DNA from: Brachypterus glaber
Taxonomy: Eukaryota > Arthropoda > Insecta > Coleoptera > Kateretidae
Direction: 5' to 3'
Assembly (NCBI GenBank): GCA_958510825.1
Contig: OY294048.1
Span: forward strand, 11,735,589 to 11,799,588
Length of the DNA stretch: 64,000 bases
In this document: positions 2,002-60,088 of the stretch, in pieces
Numbering within the stretch: the stretch's first letter is position 1
How the letters are laid out: each line of letters opens with the position of its first letter
Translations under genes and position numbers: made by a program
Notes under the pieces: model-generated
Told to the model about the DNA's origin: nothing
The model's input: the letters and a program-made list of their open reading frames with translations, nothing else
Database searches by the model: none

Positions 2002-2135
2002 CTCGCCTCTTTGCATCGGCTGTATACTTATTATTTATAAAATGCACCTACGAGAAAAAAACGCAAACAAATGTCTCCGTTCTGATTTGTAAACTGCTAT
2101 TTAGAAGTTTATAAATTTGAAAAAAATTTTATCTT

Positions 2136-2217
2136 CGTATTTGCCCTCCTGCCGATATGTGGCTCTGAAGACGGCTAATAAGCACGAAATTGATCAGTCA
2201 CTTCGGTTGGACTACTG
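2136..2217 (+). ncRNA. Degenerate hammerhead ribozyme (dispersed relic)
   Basis: The segment aligns to the ribozyme of the 436-bp array at 15.5-16.9 kb. The catalytic boxes are kept: CUGAAGA at 2164-2170, GAAA after stem II, and AUC before the expected cleavage point. Inner stem I (GUGGCU with AGUCAC) is intact. Stem II is damaged (CGGC facing GCAC) and the outer stem I no longer pairs well, so it is probably inactive. Homology continues past the ribozyme to about 2255. This shows the family also exists outside the tandem array. Confidence 0.7.
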
Positions 2218-2298
2218 AATTAATTAAAAGTTTTAAGGAATAGTAAATATTTTAAATAATATTTTATTTTATTATTTTTAAAACTTTAACCTAATATT

Positions 2299-13729: not shown

Positions 13730-13915
13730 TATACAATTTTCACGAAAAGAATCTCATTTATACTGGAATCACGATTTTATAAAATAACCAAACAGATAAT
13801 GTCTGTATGCCTTATTTAAAAAAAACTTGTTTCAATTTTTAAAGGTGTTTTTATACCTTTTTAAAACTTTAAAGCCATAATTATATTAAAAATAAAAAAG
13901 AATATTTCTATAATA

Positions 13916-15100
13916 ATATCTAGTCCACAAGCAGCTTATACAGCTTTTACCAAATCTTTACAATTTGAATGGACTTTTATGCAGCGAGTAGTTAAAAGTA
14001 ACTGTGAAGAATATGTCCCTATTCGTGAAGCAATAAGAGAACATTTAACTCCAGCTATATTAAGATGGGAAATATCTGATATTGAACATCAGCTTTTCGA
14101 TTTACCAGTCAGATTAGGAGGATTAGCCCTAAATGATCCTGTTAAAACATGTGAAGATGCTTATCAAGTGTCATCAAATACAGTTAAAAAATTAGTTGAA
14201 TGCATAAAATTAAAGGAGCCTCTCGATATTCGTGAATATGAAAATTCATTAAAATCTAGTTTAAAAGAAAAAATATCTAGAATTAAAACAAAAGAATTAG
14301 ATGATAGTAATATTATTATTGATTCCTTGCCACAAAAACAACAACGTACTTTACGGCGCATTGTTGAATCAATCAATCAATGGTTGACAGTAATTCCAAC
14401 TGCATCTGATAATTTTGATCTGTCACCAATAAAATTTCGGGATGCCCTTTCATTAAGATACAGCCATCAACCAGCAGGTCTACCAACAAAATGCGATGGA
14501 TGTGGAGAGAATATGAATATTACACATGCCCTTGACTGCAAAAAAGGAGGTCTAATAAAACATGGCCATGATAATCACAGAGATAATTGTGCAATGTTAG
14601 GAAATTTATTATGGAATGGAGTTTCAACAGAACCAATATTAAGAGAGTCGGATTCTTTAACAAACACTTCTGCATTGATCGCAGATATAAAAATATATGG
14701 AGTTTGGGAGTCTGAGAGGGCTGCGTTTTTTGATAATCGCATTGTAAATGCAGACGCACCCTCTTACCTCTCCTTAGACTGGTCTACTATTTCGTATAAT
14801 CATGCACATGAAAAACACAGGAAATATGATAGAGTTACTGAGGACATTAGAGGATCTTTTACACCTTTAGTTTGCTCGTGTGATGGTGCTTTAGGCAAAG
14901 AGTATGAAATGTTTTTAAAGCGATTGGCAAACGGCCTTTCTGAAAAATGGAGTAAACCATTTTCGAATGTGGTTAGTTGGGTTAGAGTCCAGACTCAATT
15001 TTCCATTATTCGAAGTATTTCTTTGAGACTTAGAGGAAGAAGAAGAAAATTAAGAAGCCTAGGTTTGGAAGATGGTGCGGCTCTTCCAATAATCTTTTGA
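13916..15100 (+). CDS. C-terminal part of a retrotransposon polyprotein (zinc knuckle, endonuclease-like domain), partial
   Basis: The frame is open from the insertion edge; the first ATG is at 13979 but is internal, since [19 protein letters not shown] upstream of it fits the same family. Counting from that ATG (373 residues): [15 protein letters not shown] at 40-54; a zinc-knuckle-like C172, C175, H183, C187; HDNHRD at 197-202; then IADIKI with D236, FFDNRI with D252, and HEKHRKY with E278 and K279. This order resembles the tail of reverse-transcriptase proteins common in cnidarians and other invertebrates. I infer a restriction-like (PD-D/ExK) endonuclease fold from the D...D...E/K pattern, not from an alignment. 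The reverse transcriptase itself is missing through 5' truncation. Many lysine and arginine residues precede the C-terminus (352-359), suggesting nucleic-acid binding. Function as retrotransposon tail: sure; clade: not settled. Confidence 0.82.
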
Positions 15101-15208: not shown

Positions 15209-15484
15209 TGTTTACACCTCAGCTACACCAGCATTTGAGCTTTTAGTTTGTAGGTCTTTATTATTTGGACAGAAGAGTAAATTAAAAAGAGATTTTTTAA
15301 TTGTGGATGACCCTTTAATATTCATTAATTTTATCAATAGGGAATGACATGAAATGCTTTTGAATAGAATAGCACGCTCGATGTGTATGCAAACTACATG
15401 CACTGCTGGCAGCATGCTGCCTATAATAATACGAGTCGTGGAGACAAGTATTGCTTCGCAATCCACAGTATACCTAATCTTTAC
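15209..15484. other. Unassigned spacer between retrotransposon and ribozyme array
   Basis: A 125-codon minus frame (15212-15589) starts inside the inverted ribozyme unit and runs through this stretch. Its first 35 or so residues are translated ribozyme sequence, so I do not believe it is a gene. Confidence 0.5.
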
Positions 15485-15733
15485 ATAAAACATTTTACTA
15501 TTCCTTAAAACGACTTTTGTTTGATTAACGCAGTCGTCCCTCCGAAGTGACTGATCGATTTCGTGCTTTTTAGCACTCTTCAGAGCCACATATCGATAGT
15601 AGGGACAACTACGAAAATCAAATCCTTTCCATATATCTCTATATAGAGTTTAAAAATCGTTGTAAGGAAAAGCAAAAACAGCTAGCGACATCTACTGCTA
15701 AAAGCAGAGACTGGATAAACTTATCGACAGTCC
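15485..15733 (-). repeat. Inverted partial copy of the 436-bp ribozyme unit
   Basis: Reverse complement of about 15769-16015, separated from the direct array by a 35-bp loop (15734-15768). The pair forms a hairpin with arms of about 245 bp. The copy stops at ATAAAACATTTTACTATTCC. Confidence 0.88.
15529..15613 (-). ncRNA. Type I hammerhead ribozyme, inverted copy, intact core
   Basis: On the minus strand this has the same parts as 15890-15974: long stem I, CUGAAGA, stem II GUGC/GCAC with a six-base loop, GAAA, the AUC site and the returning strand of stem I. The only change noted in stem I (UCGA for CCGA) still pairs as U-G. Predicted cleavage is between 15553 and 15552 in plus coordinates. 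Confidence 0.82.
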
Positions 15734-15889
15734 AATAGGTTCTTGAAACCAATAACTGCTTCCTTTTTTGGACTGTCGATGGGTTTATCCAGTCTCTGCT
15801 TTTAGCAGTAGATGTCGCTAGCTGTTTTTGCTTTTCCTTACAACGATTTTTAAACTCTATATAGAGATATATGGAAAGGATTTGATTTT

Positions 15890-15974
15890 CGTAGTTGTCC
15901 CTACTACCGATATGTGGCTCTGAAGAGTGCTAAAAAGCACGAAATCGATCAGTCACTTCGGAGGGACGACTGCG
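15890..15974 (+). ncRNA. Type I hammerhead self-cleaving ribozyme, unit 1, intact core
   Basis: Outer stem I: CGUAGUUGUCCCU (15890-15902) pairs fully with AGGGACGACUGCG (15962-15974), two pairs being G-U. Middle stem: CCGA with UCGG. Inner stem: GUGGCU with AGUCAC, with an internal loop UAU/U. Catalytic core: CUGAAGA at 15920-15926, stem II GUGC/GCAC around UAAAAA, then GAAA at 15941-15944. Cleavage is predicted after C15950 (AUC). Stem III is only AUC/GAU with no loop (AUCGAU is self-complementary), so a dimer or the multimer is probably the active form, as known for hammerheads with short stem III. Confidence 0.88.
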
Positions 15975-16325
15975 TTAATCAAACAAAAGTCGTTTTAAGG
16001 AATAGTAAAATGTTTTATATAGATTTTTTAAATTTGTAAATATCAAACAATTTAATTTAGTTTATTAATTCAGATACCACTGTAAAAGGTGACCTCCTAG
16101 CGTTTAGGATTCAATTGGCGGCAATGTCCACCGTGGCATTGATTAATCTGCCCCCTATCGACAGCGTGCAATAGGTTCTTGAAACCAATAACTGCTTCCT
16201 TTTTTGGACTGTCGATAGGTTTATCCAGTCTCTGCTTTTAGCAGTAGATGTCGCTAGCTGTTTTTGCTTTTCCTTACAACGATTTTTAAACTCTATATAG
16301 AGATATATGGAAAGGATTTGATTTT

Positions 16326-16410
16326 CGTAGTTGTCCCTACTACCGATATGTGACTTTGAAGAGTGCTAAAAAGCACGAAATCGATCAGTCACTTCGGAGG
16401 GACGACTGCG
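16326..16410 (+). ncRNA. Hammerhead ribozyme, unit 2, core C3 changed to U
   Basis: Same fold as unit 1 and the same predicted cut after 16386, exactly 436 bases on. The core reads UUGAAGA, so C3, which pairs with G8 in the active site, is lost; activity should be poor or absent. Stem I reads GUGACU, which pairs perfectly with AGUCAC. Confidence 0.8.
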
Positions 16411-16761
16411 TTAATCAAACAAAAGTCGTTTTAAGGAATAGTAAAATGTTTTATATAGATTTTTTAAATTTGTAAATATCAAACAATTTAATTTAGTTTA
16501 TTAATTCAGATACCACTGTAAAAGGTGACCTCCTAGCGTTTAGGATTCAATTGGCGGCAATGTCCACCGTGGCATTGATTAATCTGCCCCCTATCGACAG
16601 CGTGCAATAGGTTCTTGAAACCAATAACTGCTTCCTTTTTTGGACTGTCGATAGGTTTATCCAGTCTCTGCTTTTAGCAGTAGATGTCGCTAGCTGTTTT
16701 TGCTTTTCCTTACAACGATTTTTAAACTCTATATAGAGATATATGGAAAGGATTTGATTTT

Positions 16762-16846
16762 CGTAGTTGTCCCTACTACCGATATGTGGCTTTGAAGAGT
16801 GCTAAAAAGCACGAAATCGATCAGTCACTTCGGAGGGACGACTGCG
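16762..16846 (+). ncRNA. Hammerhead ribozyme, unit 3, core C3 changed to U
   Basis: Fold as in unit 1, predicted cut after 16822. The core again reads UUGAAGA, while stem I has the unit 1 form GUGGCU. Sharing the C3 change with unit 2 suggests the two arose from one mutated unit. Confidence 0.8.
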
Positions 16847-16936
16847 TTAATCAAACAAAAGTCGTTTTAAGGAATAGTAAAATGTTTTATATAGATTTTT
16901 TAAATTTGTAAATATCAAACAATTTAATTTAGTTTA

Positions 16937-17083
16937 CTAATCTTTACAGTTTACTTCGAAAGACATGATTTCTTTGAGCTCGGGCGCTCACTTAATTCTC
17001 TAATCAGCTTTACACTCCGCAATGGAGCTCTTTACAACTAGAATTATGAAACAAAAGACGCCTACGCTATCTCTACCTCATTT
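16937..17083. other. Spacer, nothing recognised
   Basis: Unique sequence between the array and the next hairpin. Confidence 0.45.
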
Positions 17084-17175
17084 GTGCTACACTTTCTAGC
17101 CAACCAAATAAATACTGTATTTGTTTTTCATACAACAAATACAGTATTTATTTGGTTGGCCGGAAAGTGTAGCAC
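17084..17175. repeat. Long hairpin, 43-bp arms
   Basis: 17084-17126 and 17133-17175 are near-perfect reverse complements with a six-base loop. The arm core (CCAACCAAATAAATACTGTA) recurs in degenerate form as another hairpin at 17290-17349, so this is a small mobile or expanding family. Confidence 0.8.
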
Positions 17176-18017
17176 TGAGCGGCACGAACGAACATAGCTA
17201 ATGTGAATCTGTAGAATAAGATAATTCTACTAAAATTTAGATGGCGCCAGTAATTTCTTTAATAAAAATAATAAAGTTATACTTTTCGCCCGGCCAAGTA
17301 AATATTGTATTTGTTCAACAAAGAACAAATACAGAATTTGTTTGGTTGGGTGGAAGTGGGAGTGTATATATGTTTTCTATCCTTTTTGGGTAGAACTTTT
17401 GTCCCTGTCTAATCTAACGGGAGAAATCGCCATTCTCCGGCAATACAAGTTGTCGTATGAGAACAACAAGGTTTCAACTATACAAATTATAGATTTGAGT
17501 TTTGATGAAATCAAAACTTTAAAATCAGGAAACTTACCTTAAATTTCATAATCTTATACAGAATCACGTGATCTTTAGGAAATTATTACACGAAGTAGGT
17601 ATAGTATACCTGGTATAGTATACCAGGTGTATACCTAATCACAAATTATGTCTGAGTTTTTCTGTTATTTTTTAGGAAGTTGAACCCAAAAAAGTTGTAT
17701 GGGTTGGACTTTTTGTCCAATGTCCAATGGACATTTCGTTCTTAAATGAGCAAAATAAAAACATGACACACGGACGGACGGAAAGACGGACAGGCAGATT
17801 TTTTGAAGTTGTTTAGAACTCAATAAAAAGTAAGTGCGAATAAAAATGTCTGTTGGAATGTTTGACTTTGGAAATTTAAAACTATCGTATAATACTCTTT
17901 TAAGACTACGTGCTGTGGAGAGTATATTAATTGCGGATCATTGGAACGCATTGGCTTAAAATGACTTCGAAAGTTTGAACAACTAGTAATTACAAATCCA
18001 ATCTAAGTTTAATAATT
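17176..18017. other. No gene; related hairpin, palindrome and GGAC repeat
   Basis: 17290-17349 is a weaker relative of the hairpin at 17084. 17597-17636 is a nested palindrome (AGGTATAGTATACC then TGGTATAGTATACCA). 17769-17800 has GGAC tetramers. The 66-codon frame at 17342-17542 has no recognisable motif. Confidence 0.5.
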
Positions 18018-43033: not shown

Positions 43034-44060
43034 TAAAAAAAAAGAGTTGAGGTTAAAAACCTATTTACTCAAGTTAAAAAAAAAATTATGTAAAAAGTAT
43101 TAAATAAGTCTATCCAACTGGTTTTTAAAAGTGTTTATAGTTGGCGCAAGCACAACATCATGAGTTCCAAGTCGTAAATACTCTGCTACTTAAAAATGTT
43201 CTTCTGTGGGCAGTCCTGTATATTTCATATTTTAGCTTTAGGCTGTGTCCTCTAAGGCGTCCATCGTTGTTTAATGAAAAAAGTGATCGCAGATCAATGG
43301 AAAATGTATTATGTAGTATTCTATATGTCATTATAATGGAACCTCTTTCCAACCTGTCCATAACACTGGGTAGACCAAATAAAATGAGGCGGTTTTCGTA
43401 CGATGGTCGAGTTCTTCCGTATGGTAATCTCGTAGCACTTCGTTGAACATTTTATAATAAATTAATATCACGCACCAAGTTAGGGTACCATACTGAGAAT
43501 CCGAATTCCAATATAGGGCGTATATAAGTTTTATACAAGCAGGCTGCTGTTTGAACATAGGGTCTACAAAACGCCTTTTTAAATAGAAATATAGTTTTTC
43601 TAGATTTACTACACACTAAGTTTATGTGTTCAGACCATGTTAAGTCGCTTGTTACTATAACTCCAAGATCAGTATGTTTTTCCACTTTTGTTAGGTTACC
43701 ATTATCTCAAACATAGTCCATCCGAGGATTGTTTTTACCCAGGTGCAGCACAACGCATTTACCGATATTTAAAGGAATAAGCCATATTTCACTCCACCTT
43801 AGAATGGTATTGATATCTTGTTGAAGTAGGTGATGCTCTAGAAATGGATTCCCAAAAAGTTTTGAGTCATCAGCAAAAAAAGAACTAATGCAGTGGAGAA
43901 GACGAGGCAAATCGGCAGTAAATATTATAAACAATAGGGGGCCTAATACCGACCCCTGGGGCACGCCACTGTCTACAGAGTAAAATCTAGAAAAGCAGTT
44001 GCCAACTTTAACTCGGAAAGAGCGGTTTGTTAAAAACTGAGCGATCCAGGCATTGCATAG
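42876..44060 (-). mobile_element. 5'-truncated LINE on the minus strand with a 15-bp direct repeat
   Basis: The dead reverse transcriptase (43100-44062) plus its 3' region lie between two perfect copies of AATACAACAACAAAA (42861-42875 and 44061-44075), a likely target duplication. The 3' region includes an (ATT)n microsatellite at 43002-43033 and a hairpin at 42963-42992 (ATATACAAC/GTTGTATAT). LINE insertions of CR1, I and Jockey types often end in such simple repeats. Confidence 0.78.
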
Positions 44061-44062
44061 AA
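43100..44062 (-). pseudogene. LINE reverse transcriptase C-terminal half, nonsense-damaged
   Basis: Read from 44062 down: a segment beginning WIAQFLTNRSFRVKV, then VPQGSVLGPLLFIIF, FADDSKLF (the catalytic F/Y-A-D-D box, motif C), HLGKNN, the thumb-like LGVIVTSDLTWSEHI, and a tail ending NTFKNQLDRLI. Two in-frame stops interrupt it, TGA at about 43707-43709 and TAA near 43449, and a frameshift lies near 43155, just before DVVLAPTINTFKNQLD. The palm N-terminal half and the endonuclease are missing. The pattern fits a CR1/Jockey-like LINE. The plus-strand frame 43141-43446 is antisense shadow. Confidence 0.9.
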
Positions 44063-44075
44063 TACAACAACAAAA

Positions 44076-44592
44076 AAATAAACGTGTTCAGTATTTACAA
44101 ATGAGTGCAGTTGTTTGATCTACAACGACGAACTGCTAAGCGATGAGGTTTTTCTTTATCGCGCAGAGAGCAAACTGGGCGGGGCTTGCAATTCCGCAGG
44201 GTCGGATCGTAGCTCCTTACTACGTCACGATCCTCGCTTTAAAATGCAGGCAATTCATCTGACCCGTCCGTGTGCGGCTGGCTAGCTGAACCTGGGGTGC
44301 GTCGGCTCTCTACTGCTTTTCAAAATTTGGTGTAATGTATTTTAAATATTTATTTGCACATAGAAATTACATATCATATGTAATTACATGTACATGCTTA
44401 TCGTTGAGTATACTTATGCACATACAAATTTTAGCGCAAACTGGCTACTTTCAATATTTTGGTAAAACTTTGATTAGATTCAGCTGATTGTAGCCACCTT
44501 TATTGATCATCCTTTCTCAAAAAACTACAACAACGTTGTTGTATTATTAAATAATATGAATCTACAATTTTAATAGTGTATTCAATATAACG
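44076..44592. other. No gene; slightly GC-richer stretch
   Basis: 44140-44310 is richer in G and C than its surroundings (GGGCGGGGCTTG, GGGTCGGATCG) but has no open frame of note and no repeat partner noticed. Confidence 0.4.
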
Positions 44593-49188: not shown

Positions 49189-50065
49189 TATAGGGGTTTA
49201 AGGTTGCTAAAATTGAATCTGATAATATATATTTTTTAAGTCCAAACTCACCCCCGAGGGGATGAGGGGGTAAATATTTTTAAATACTTATATTATTTTC
49301 GTAAAAATTGGTATATAGGGGTTTTTGGGGTCTACGAATCTGAATCTGACAATACAATTTTTTGCATTTCACGCCCTGAGGGGTGGGGTGGTTCTCGTAA
49401 AAATTGGTATATTTGGGTTTTTGAGGTTGCTGAAAGTGAATCTGATAATAAAAAAATCTAACTCCACCCCCTGAGGGTCGAGGGGTTGTTTTTGTTTTTG
49501 AGGGGTGGGGTGGTTCTCTTAAAAATTGGTATATTTTGGTTTTTGAGGTTGCTGAAAGTGAATCTGATAATGAAAAAAATCTAACTCCACCCCCTGAGGG
49601 TCGAGGGGTTGTTTTTGTGAAAATTGGTATATTGGGCTTTTTGAGGTTGCTGAAAGTGAATCTGATAAAAAAAATATTCTCCTACCCCTGAGGGGTGGGG
49701 GGTAGTTTGTTTTGGACTTTTCGTATATTGGGTTTTTTGAGGTTGCTGAAACTGAATCTGGCAATAAAAAAATTCTATTAAACCCCCTGAGGGGCGGGGG
49801 GTAGTTTTTGTGAAAATCTGTATATTTGGGTTTTTGAGGTTGCTGAAGGTGAATCTAATATTACAAAAAAAAATCTAAATCCACCCCCTGAGGGTCGGGG
49901 GGTTCTTTTCTAGAAAACTTATATATTGAGGTTTTTGAGAGTGCTAAAACTGAATCTTAAATACATTTTTTCTAAATCCACCCCCTGAGGGGCCAGGGGT
50001 AGTTTTCGTTAAAATTGGTATATTGGGGTTTTTAAGTTTACTGAAAGTGAATTTGATAATAAACA
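49189..50065 (+). repeat. Minisatellite, about 100-bp degenerate units
   Basis: About eight units, each with AAAATTGGTATAT, GGGTTTTTGAGGTTGCTGAA, GTGAATCTGATAATA and CCCCCTGAGGG, spaced 96 to 122 bp. Each unit carries a CCCTGAGGG palindrome. A two- to three-unit relative is at 59320-59590. The 81-codon minus frame 49519-49764 is translated repeat. Confidence 0.88.
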
Positions 50066-59320: not shown

Positions 59321-59590
59321 TATTTTGAAATATTTTTTTCAAAATTGGTATATAGGGGTTTTTGGGGCCGCCGAATATGAATCTGATAATATTTTTTTTC
59401 TAATTTTACCCCCTAAAGGGCGGGTGGTAGTTATCCTGAAAATTGGTATATTGGGGTTTTGAGGTTACTGAAAGTGAATATGATAATAACAAAATTCTAA
59501 CTCCACTCCCTAAGGGACGGGGGTTGTTTTTGTGAAAATTTGTATATTGAGGTTTTTGAGGTTATTGAAAGTAAATCTGACAATAAAAAA
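59321..59590 (+). repeat. Short minisatellite related to 49189-50065
   Basis: Two to three units with AAAATTGGTATATxGGGGTTTT, GAATCTGATAATA and CCCCCTAAAGGG. Confidence 0.8.
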
Positions 59591-60088
59591 TCCATTTCTC
59601 ACTACCAAGTAGTTACACTGAAAATCATTTTGCACTGAAGAACACGTTTTTTAATAAGTATTGTATATTTTGGAGAAAAAAAAATCTTTTTTCGGGGTCC
59701 AAAGTAAACGTATACTACCTCTGTTGTAAAGCTGCAATGAGTATAATGAGAATTAATAGAACTGTAAGCTTGTAGTAACCCTTGCCCAACTCTGCCCTGT
59801 ATATAGATATATTTATCTAGCTTATAACAAGAATTTATTCCAAAATAACCGCCAAATCTGTGTTAAGAGTGTATATTTGAAATTCAAACTATCTAGTTTA
59901 CATTTCTTGCTCTTTATGGTTTACTTTCCTTTAAAGATAAATAGAACTAAATTGGGAAATACATTTTGACATTTGGTGGTTGGTATTCCTTTATCTTAAA
60001 TAAACGTAAGGGTAATAATAAGATTTAAGATTTTAGAATTGCTTTTGATATCACAGTTAACTCATAGTGCGCTATAGCGCTAACTATA
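59591..60088. other. No gene recognised
   Basis: AT-rich; nothing found. Confidence 0.4.

What the first reader, a model, noticed from the sequence alone, without database searches (positions are those of the whole stretch)
15485..16936. 436-bp tandem units each carrying a type I hammerhead ribozyme: a candidate animal retrozyme
Seen: exact 436-bp period, and in every unit an 85-nt segment with all hammerhead parts (CUGAAGA, stem II GUGC/GCAC, GAAA, AUC before the cut, a 23-bp stem I in three blocks). The 13-base outer stem arms pair completely, which chance would not give. Known: animal and plant retrozymes and ribozyme satellites are tandem DNA repeats transcribed, self-cut and circularised. 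Inferred: transcripts of this array yield 436-nt monomers. A stem III of AUC/GAU with no loop implies dimeric or multimeric action. Unit length, core variant (A at position 7) and extended stem I may be new.
Basis: partly seen in the sequence, partly recalled or inferred. Interest (0 to 1): 0.92.

Follow-up and report, generated by a model that had tools for sequence, protein, structure and literature searches.

The report
Ribozyme retroelement inserted by paired priming
The repeat is one of about two thousand copies of a tiny self-cutting-RNA mobile element in this (probably insect) genome, and the way its copies end suggests that a Penelope-type enzyme copies one RNA from both broken DNA strands, each strand starting at its own fixed site.

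Summary
The 436-bp tandem and its type I hammerhead are real, but two of three direct units carry a damaged core (UUGAAGA), and the feature is larger than reported: one retro-insertion (15486-16936) with a 12-bp target duplication, an inverted partial unit joined head-to-head to 2.8 direct units. The genome holds 2136 exact matches to the core (reversed control 0). In 48 of 48 two-armed insertions whose outer ends could both be classed, one end lies at a 'short' site and the other about 45-50 nt further, at a 'tail' site (4 needed bridging of later inserts; one locus was set aside as a recombinant; 3 have an end at neither site). Inner ends are scattered, mostly joined with small overlaps; arms of one insertion share template variants. 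A Penelope-like element (PLE) here shows the same pairing in 14 of 14 classed pairs. I read it as an animal retrozyme inserted by PLE-type priming of both strands of a staggered cut on one, probably circular, RNA. Animal retrozymes, PLE hammerheads, two start sites and an optional tail are published; the strict pairing and its sharing by retrozyme and PLE were not found in my searches. Activity and circularity are untested.

The parts
15474..15485 (.). left target-site duplication CTAATCTTTACA (11-12 bp), preceded by AC
15486..15735 (-). short-site (S) arm: inverted partial unit, outer end at unit about 250
   Evidence: 98% complementary to each direct unit
15530..15601 (-). hammerhead in the S arm, core CUGAAGA kept
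   Evidence: HH9 31.2 bits, sub-threshold
15722..16936 (+). tail-site (T) arm: about 2.8 direct 436-bp units, outer end at unit about 297-301; overlaps the S arm by 14 bp at the head-to-head junction (15722-15735)
15890..15974 (+). hammerhead of direct unit 1; core at 15920, cut 15950/15951; core intact
16326..16410 (+). hammerhead of direct unit 2; core C3 to U at 16356, expected inactive
16762..16846 (+). hammerhead of direct unit 3; core C3 to U at 16792, expected inactive
16937..16948 (.). right target-site duplication CTAATCTTTACA, followed by GTTT
2126..2228 (+). old diverged copy (unit 113-216, 84.6%) with remnant hammerhead

Best explanation
A non-autonomous hammerhead retroelement of the animal-retrozyme kind, inserted by PLE-type machinery. 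Shown: dispersed copies with duplications mostly of 12-14 bp, two cDNA arms facing outward, one arm starting at site S (unit about 250) and the other at site T (about 297), scattered inner ends, mostly small overlaps at the join, arms up to about three units long, template variants shared by the two arms, and the same S/T pairing in a PLE of the genome. Inferred: the tandem RNA is cut by the HHR and closed into a circle; a dimer of PLE RT-endonuclease cuts both strands near an NTT (often GTT) motif, leaving 12-14-nt 3' overhangs; each overhang primes reverse transcription on the same circle, one at S and one at T; the RTs run round it until they fall off; the two cDNA ends are joined by end joining with microhomology and filled in.
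For: Discrete ends: of 46 RZ-A two-armed loci, 43 have both ends classed and all 43 are one S + one T (39 read directly; 4 after bridging later inserts); RZ-B 5 of 5 (ends read by eye). At 1:1 odds and with independent insertions 48 of 48 has p about 7e-15. The bins were drawn after about 20 insertions; of the loci fetched later (L037-L076) 25 direct and 3 bridged are all S/T. In the 35 simple two-arm insertions: TSD 12-14 bp in 28, inner overlap 0-5 nt in 24 (more in 3, extra bases in 8), one of 70 inner ends within 180-187 round the ribozyme cut (1.3 expected), 19 of 70 arms over 436 bp. Minor alleles at diagnostic sites agree between arms 0.78, permuted mean 0.17, maximum 0.41; between laps 10 shared, 5 discordant. 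At 35 target sites TT lies at +1,+2 of the nick in 18 (S side) and 19 (T side), background 0.149. PLE-A: 48 of 50 listed pLTR matches end at S (280-297) or T (317-319); 13 of 14 head-to-head pairs in the list have both ends classed, all S/T, plus C11:22.0 Mb; one of the 13 read by letters has S, T and a 14-bp TSD. Published: a PLE protein nicks and extends both strands, starts at two adjacent internal sites and is predicted to be a dimer (PMC11167929; main text read).
Against: No RNA data and no biochemistry. No similarity of note between the unit and PLE-A, so which PLE acts is unknown. The published work saw no difference in start site between top and bottom strands in vitro. For PLE-A, T was called when the match reached the query's end, so except in two loci read by letters a T may be an inner pLTR-ORF join; the list holds 40 of 148 candidates. 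5 lap and 11 arm discordances exist at diagnostic sites, and window units 2 and 3 share C3U while unit 1 does not, which a single clean circle does not predict. 5 insertions have a single arm and a duplication. L004, L033 and L056 have an end at neither site; L018 looks T/T and was set aside as a recombinant. The S bin was widened from 266 to 268 to admit L051. The sample is mostly C1, 0-22.5 Mb, and was picked by an intact HHR core. GT lies within 2 nt of both nicks in only 8 of 35 sites.
Confidence: 0.8

Rival explanations
1. Same element and same double priming, but the template is an uncut linear multimer (or two RNAs), not an HHR-made circle.
For: Units 2 and 3 of the window share C3U, unit 1 does not; 5 lap and 11 arm discordances; HHR mutants insert normally for a lizard PLE in vitro (PMC11167929, main text read).
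Against: Minor alleles mostly agree between laps and between arms. Arms consist of head-to-tail unit sequence; but the 35 simple cases were selected for that (no gap over 60 bp), and copies with long foreign stretches would have been split into single-arm clusters, so this is weak.
Confidence: 0.3
2. Head-to-head arms come from self-priming of a cDNA on an antisense template, as proposed for rotifer Penelope.
For: Proposed for head-to-head pLTRs with palindromes at the junction (PMC3846280, passages).
Against: Both outer ends sit at internal start sites next to target DNA; inner ends are scattered and mostly joined with 0-5 nt overlap; the second arm would not regularly begin at the other site.
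Confidence: 0.06
3. Mobilised by an ordinary LINE with twin priming.
For: Twin priming also gives inverted arms; TPRT duplications are of similar size (recalled).
Against: Two fixed internal starts; S and T arms overlap in template, unlike the parts of a twin-primed LINE copy (recalled); a PLE of the genome shows the same pairing. LINEs of this genome were not searched.
Confidence: 0.05
4. A satellite array or a foldback DNA transposon that happens to hold a hammerhead.
For: Tandem units and long inverted repeats.
Against: Dispersed copies, duplications mostly of 12-14 bp, variable inner ends and arm lengths, two alternative outer ends.
Confidence: 0.02

Closest known systems
Animal (non-LTR) retrozymes, Cervera and de la Pena 2020 (PMC7229834)
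   Same: Small non-coding tandem units with type I HHR, TSDs larger than 4 bp, many copies, self-paired monomer; PLEs suspected as movers
   Different: 436 nt against 170-400 for the RNAs they report (genomic repeats 150-450 bp); minimal stem III; head-to-head insertion with two start sites not seen there ('inverted' occurs 0 times in the main text; supplements not seen); RNA not tested here
Penelope-like elements and their pLTRs (PMC3846280 passages, PMC11167929 main text)
   Same: Head-to-head copies, 30-40 nt tail on one end, TSDs, two RT start sites, HHR
   Different: No ORF in the unit; the tail is on exactly one end in every classed two-arm copy, where it was called optional
PLE minimal hammerheads acting as dimers (Lunse 2017; title seen in a reference list, paper not held)
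   Same: Type I, minimal stem III, possible dimer
   Different: Stem I here is long (23 pairs in three blocks); comparison rests on recall
Newt satellite HHR repeats and plant LTR retrozymes (named; details partly recalled)
   Same: HHR repeats, multimer processing
   Different: Satellite repeats, or LTR elements with 4-bp TSDs and type III HHRs

Membership tests
animal non-LTR retrozyme | type I HHR in the unit | tested here: met
   but window units 2 and 3 have a broken core
animal non-LTR retrozyme | short non-coding unit, dimers to multimers | tested here: met
   436 bp; 19 of 70 arms over one unit, longest about 3.2 units
animal non-LTR retrozyme | TSD longer than 4 bp | tested here: met
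   7-15 bp in 35 of 35 simple two-arm insertions, 12-14 in 28
animal non-LTR retrozyme | no LTR, primer binding site or polypurine tract | not tested
   no separate search was made
animal non-LTR retrozyme | transcribed, self-cleaved, circular RNA in tissues | not testable with these tools
   no RNA data held
Penelope-like element | RT and GIY-YIG ORF | tested here: not met
   the 436-nt unit is too short and has only short frames (units inside L018); the genome's PLE-A has both domains
mobilised by PLE machinery (works like) | head-to-head arms with outer ends at two start sites | tested here: met
   48 of 48 classed; PLE-A 14 of 14 classed
mobilised by PLE machinery (works like) | shared RNA recognition sequence with a PLE | tested here: inconclusive
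   no meaningful similarity to PLE-A; of the other PLEs only 1.3 kb of one was read (L078)
hammerhead ribozyme (Rfam) | covariance-model match at gathering score | tested here: not met
   best 31.2 bits against 52, none at gathering
hammerhead ribozyme | paired stems kept by compensatory change | tested here: met
   weakly: 96.7% of cells paired in 62 distinct copies (slid controls 33-53%); both-side changes at 3 pairs in 10 cells, 8 of them one G-C to A-U change of RZ-B/L044; shuffles reach the number of such pairs in 70 of 500, of such cells in 0 of 500

The most novel reading that the evidence does not exclude
PLE-type retrotransposition is a two-handed reaction: a dimer cuts both target strands and each protomer owns one of two start sites on a single circular RNA, so every full insertion is one S-primed and one T-primed cDNA from the same circle, joined by end joining. 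The animal retrozyme is the minimal substrate of this reaction: a ribozyme to make the circle plus an S-T start module.
Probability: 0.45. Interest if true: 0.82.

Novelty: new variant of a known kind. Interest (0 to 1): 0.64.

Why it matters
Who moves animal retrozymes, and how Penelope elements make their odd head-to-head copies, are open questions; PLEs were named as strong candidates only (PMC7229834, discussion read). A one-S-one-T pairing shared by a retrozyme and a PLE in one genome ties the two together and predicts what a purified PLE protein should do with this RNA. The many young copies make a natural assay of the reaction.

Tried and rejected
Satellite array: rejected by dispersed TSD-flanked copies. 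Foldback DNA transposon: rejected by variable inner ends. Seeming S/S loci: L045 is T+S split by a later 1.9-kb insert; L059 and L065 belong to RZ-B, which has its own tail. Seeming T/T locus L018: identical to L021 for 2743 bp, L021 being T/S with TSD CAATAATAAAG, while L018's right end is that of L025; read as a recombinant and left out of the count. Linear HHR-cut monomer as template: no pile-up of inner ends at the cut. Origin of the unit from the PLE-A pLTR: no meaningful similarity. Rfam HHR in L077, L078, L080: none; HHR-like motifs there were seen by eye only. A first count of GT at the nick was biased, because the duplication was extended to its maximum and so forces a mismatch at position 0; I replaced it with positions +1,+2. 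Telomere pattern as a clue to the host: TTAGG uninformative, TCAGG did not complete. Dropped before the counts: L005 and L006 (short diverged hits); fragments contained in another cluster's sequence (such as L045:120-177) were merged away by the script. Single-arm clusters without a found duplication, not counted: L029, the second of L041, L043, L060 (beside a run of N), L062, L072.

Full report
What is there. The window shows 2.8 copies of a 436-bp unit at 15722-16941. Left of it lies an inverted copy of 251-254 bp, 98% complementary to each direct unit. The whole, 15486-16936, is bounded by CTAATCTTTACA on both sides. It is therefore one insertion with two arms facing outward, not an array. 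An older, 84.6% copy lies at 2126-2228.

The ribozyme. The segment round 15920-15951 has all hammerhead parts and folds far better than shuffles (z -7.1). Rfam gives only sub-threshold matches to HH9, in all four copies. Two of three direct units carry UUGAAGA, a change at C3, which is invariant in hammerheads as I recall them. In 62 distinct copies taken from the fetched loci 96.7% of the pair cells are standard, against 33-53% when the partner is slid; changes on both sides occur at three pairs, mainly one G-C to A-U change of the RZ-B subfamily, and the number of such pairs alone is reached by 70 of 500 shuffles. The stem III sequence AUCGAU can form a 1-bp stem with a UCGA loop, or a 6-bp stem between two molecules; monomer action is uncertain. 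The 436 nt from the cut of unit 1 to that of unit 2 fold as a strongly self-paired RNA (z -7.65).

Copy number and age. The core pattern has 1103 + 1033 exact matches in the 648-Mb genome and 0 for the reversed control; decayed cores are not counted. Arms differ from the majority letters of the sample by a median of 1.1%, so the family is young.

Anatomy of insertions. From L001-L076 (without L005 and L006) a script listed 68 clusters. Forty-six RZ-A loci have two arms. In 39 both outer ends fall directly in two bins, S (243-268) and T (288-310): 35 simple ones and L039, L041, L067 and L076; 38 with the S bin as first drawn (to 266). Four more are classed after bridging later inserts: L038, L045, L054 and L021/L023, whose arm is split by a tRNA-like SINE. 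All 43 have one S and one T. Three have an end at neither site (L004 at 348, L033 at 53, L056 at 200). The diverged RZ-B subfamily has another tail sequence, and 5 of 5 two-armed copies again have one S and one T about 50 nt apart, read by eye from the table; L064 shows no second arm there. L018, which looks T/T, is read as a recombinant of L021 and L025 and left out. Five more have a single arm with a duplication: L010, L049, L053 (S), L013, L071 (T). The bins were drawn after about 20 insertions; the later loci L037-L076 added 25 direct and 3 bridged cases, all S/T.

How the arms were made. In the 35 simple cases the duplication is 12-14 bp in 28, the overlap at the inner join is 0-5 nt in 24 (longer in 3, extra bases in 8), inner ends are spread over the unit with no excess at the ribozyme cut, and S and T arms do not differ in length (p 0.52). 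Nineteen of 70 arms exceed one unit. A second set of 35, the directly classed insertions with a duplication of at least 9 bp (35 of 39), was read as empty sites: TT at +1,+2 beyond the nick in 18 (S side) and 19 (T side) against 0.149 in the flanks (p 5e-7 and 7e-8), T at +1 on both sides in 21 of 35. G at position 0 (14 and 18 of 35) looks enriched too, but the maximal extension of the duplication biases that position. Head-to-head arms with outward 3' ends and a duplication are what two target-primed cDNAs on the two 3' overhangs of a staggered cut would leave. The two arms of one insertion share minor alleles at diagnostic sites far more than re-paired arms (0.78 against 0.17, maximum 0.41 in 1000 shuffles), and laps of one arm mostly agree (10 shared, 5 discordant). 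This points to one RNA, or identical RNAs, per insertion. It does not prove a circle: 11 arm comparisons and 5 lap comparisons disagree, and the window's C3U is in units 2 and 3 only (a later duplication could explain that).

The Penelope link. The genome holds PLEs with RT and GIY-YIG domains. PLE-A is tandem with a period of about 3001 bp. One head-to-head PLE-A insertion ends at S on one side and 34 nt further, at T, on the other. A pLTR search listed 50 matches (40 of 148 candidates scored); 48 end at S (280-297) or at the query end, T (317-319). Fourteen head-to-head pairs can be read from it; 13 have both ends classed and all are one S + one T, one pair having an end at 239. Letters fetched for one of the 13 confirm S, T and a 14-bp duplication with AAC before and GT after. 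For the others T may be an inner pLTR-ORF join. The distances from the cut to S and T are about 69 and 114 nt in the retrozyme, and about 54 and 88 in PLE-A if the HHR-like motif seen by eye there is right. PLE-A does not resemble the unit, so a closer PLE may be the true partner.

What is known. Cervera and de la Pena (PMC7229834; abstract, sections 13 and 17 and search passages seen) define animal retrozymes and name PLEs as strong candidate movers; the word 'inverted' does not occur in the main text. Frangieh and colleagues (PMC11167929; main text read, passages) show that a PLE protein cleaves and extends both strands, starts at two adjacent internal sites that match the tail, and is predicted to be a dimer; they report no start-site difference between strands. 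Arkhipova's group (PMC3846280; passages) describe head-to-head pLTRs, TSDs of 8-10 bp in the examples seen, and a tail optionally on one inverted pLTR, and suggest self-priming on antisense RNA. The strict pairing and its sharing between retrozyme and PLE did not turn up in the listings of the searches, of which I opened four papers (PMC7229834, PMC11167929, PMC3846280, PMC7761336; the last by passages); the key PLE-hammerhead papers of 2014 and 2017 are not held, so I cannot exclude that they or older work state it.

Verdict. A new variant of a known kind: an animal retrozyme with a PLE-type insertion signature that is sharper than the published descriptions I saw. What is shown is the sequence pattern; the enzyme, the circle and the division of labour between protomers are inferred.

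Noticed in passing
window 2126-2228: Fossil copy of the same ribozyme unit, 84.6% identical, CUGAAGA kept, stems partly decayed.
   Followed up: partly
window 13865-15100 (+): Open frame of 411 aa just upstream of the element with no Pfam match at E up to 1; perhaps part of another mobile element.
   Followed up: partly
window 17076-17184 and 17264-17375: Two related hairpin (MITE-like) inverted repeats right of the element; they give dozens of sub-threshold microRNA matches in Rfam, most likely spurious.
   Followed up: no
window 49522-50063 and 59411-59591: 97-bp tandem repeat with a G+C-rich CCACCCCCTGAGGGG block; a related stretch lies near L076:4490-4545, minus strand.
   Followed up: no
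window 43707-44087 (-): Reverse transcriptase fragment (RVT_1, E 1.4e-10) of another retroelement.
   Followed up: no
L044, L059, L064, L065, L069, L073: A second, older subfamily (RZ-B, loop UAACAA; L044 with core CUGAUGA) with its own tail sequence, the same S/T pairing and a compensatory stem I change.
   Followed up: yes
unit positions 395-410: Mild excess of inner arm ends (8 of 70, 2.6 expected) next to a GGUUCUUGAAACC hairpin; perhaps an RT stall or a natural RNA end.
   Followed up: partly
L018 (C1:3.374 Mb) and L021 (C1:3.426 Mb): Near-identical loci that differ from the retrozyme end onward; L018 looks like an ectopic recombinant of L021 and L025.
   Followed up: yes
L078 (C12:20.12 Mb), minus strand: A second PLE family with CUGAAGA and GAAACG pieces downstream of its endonuclease, seen by eye; no Rfam match.
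   Followed up: partly
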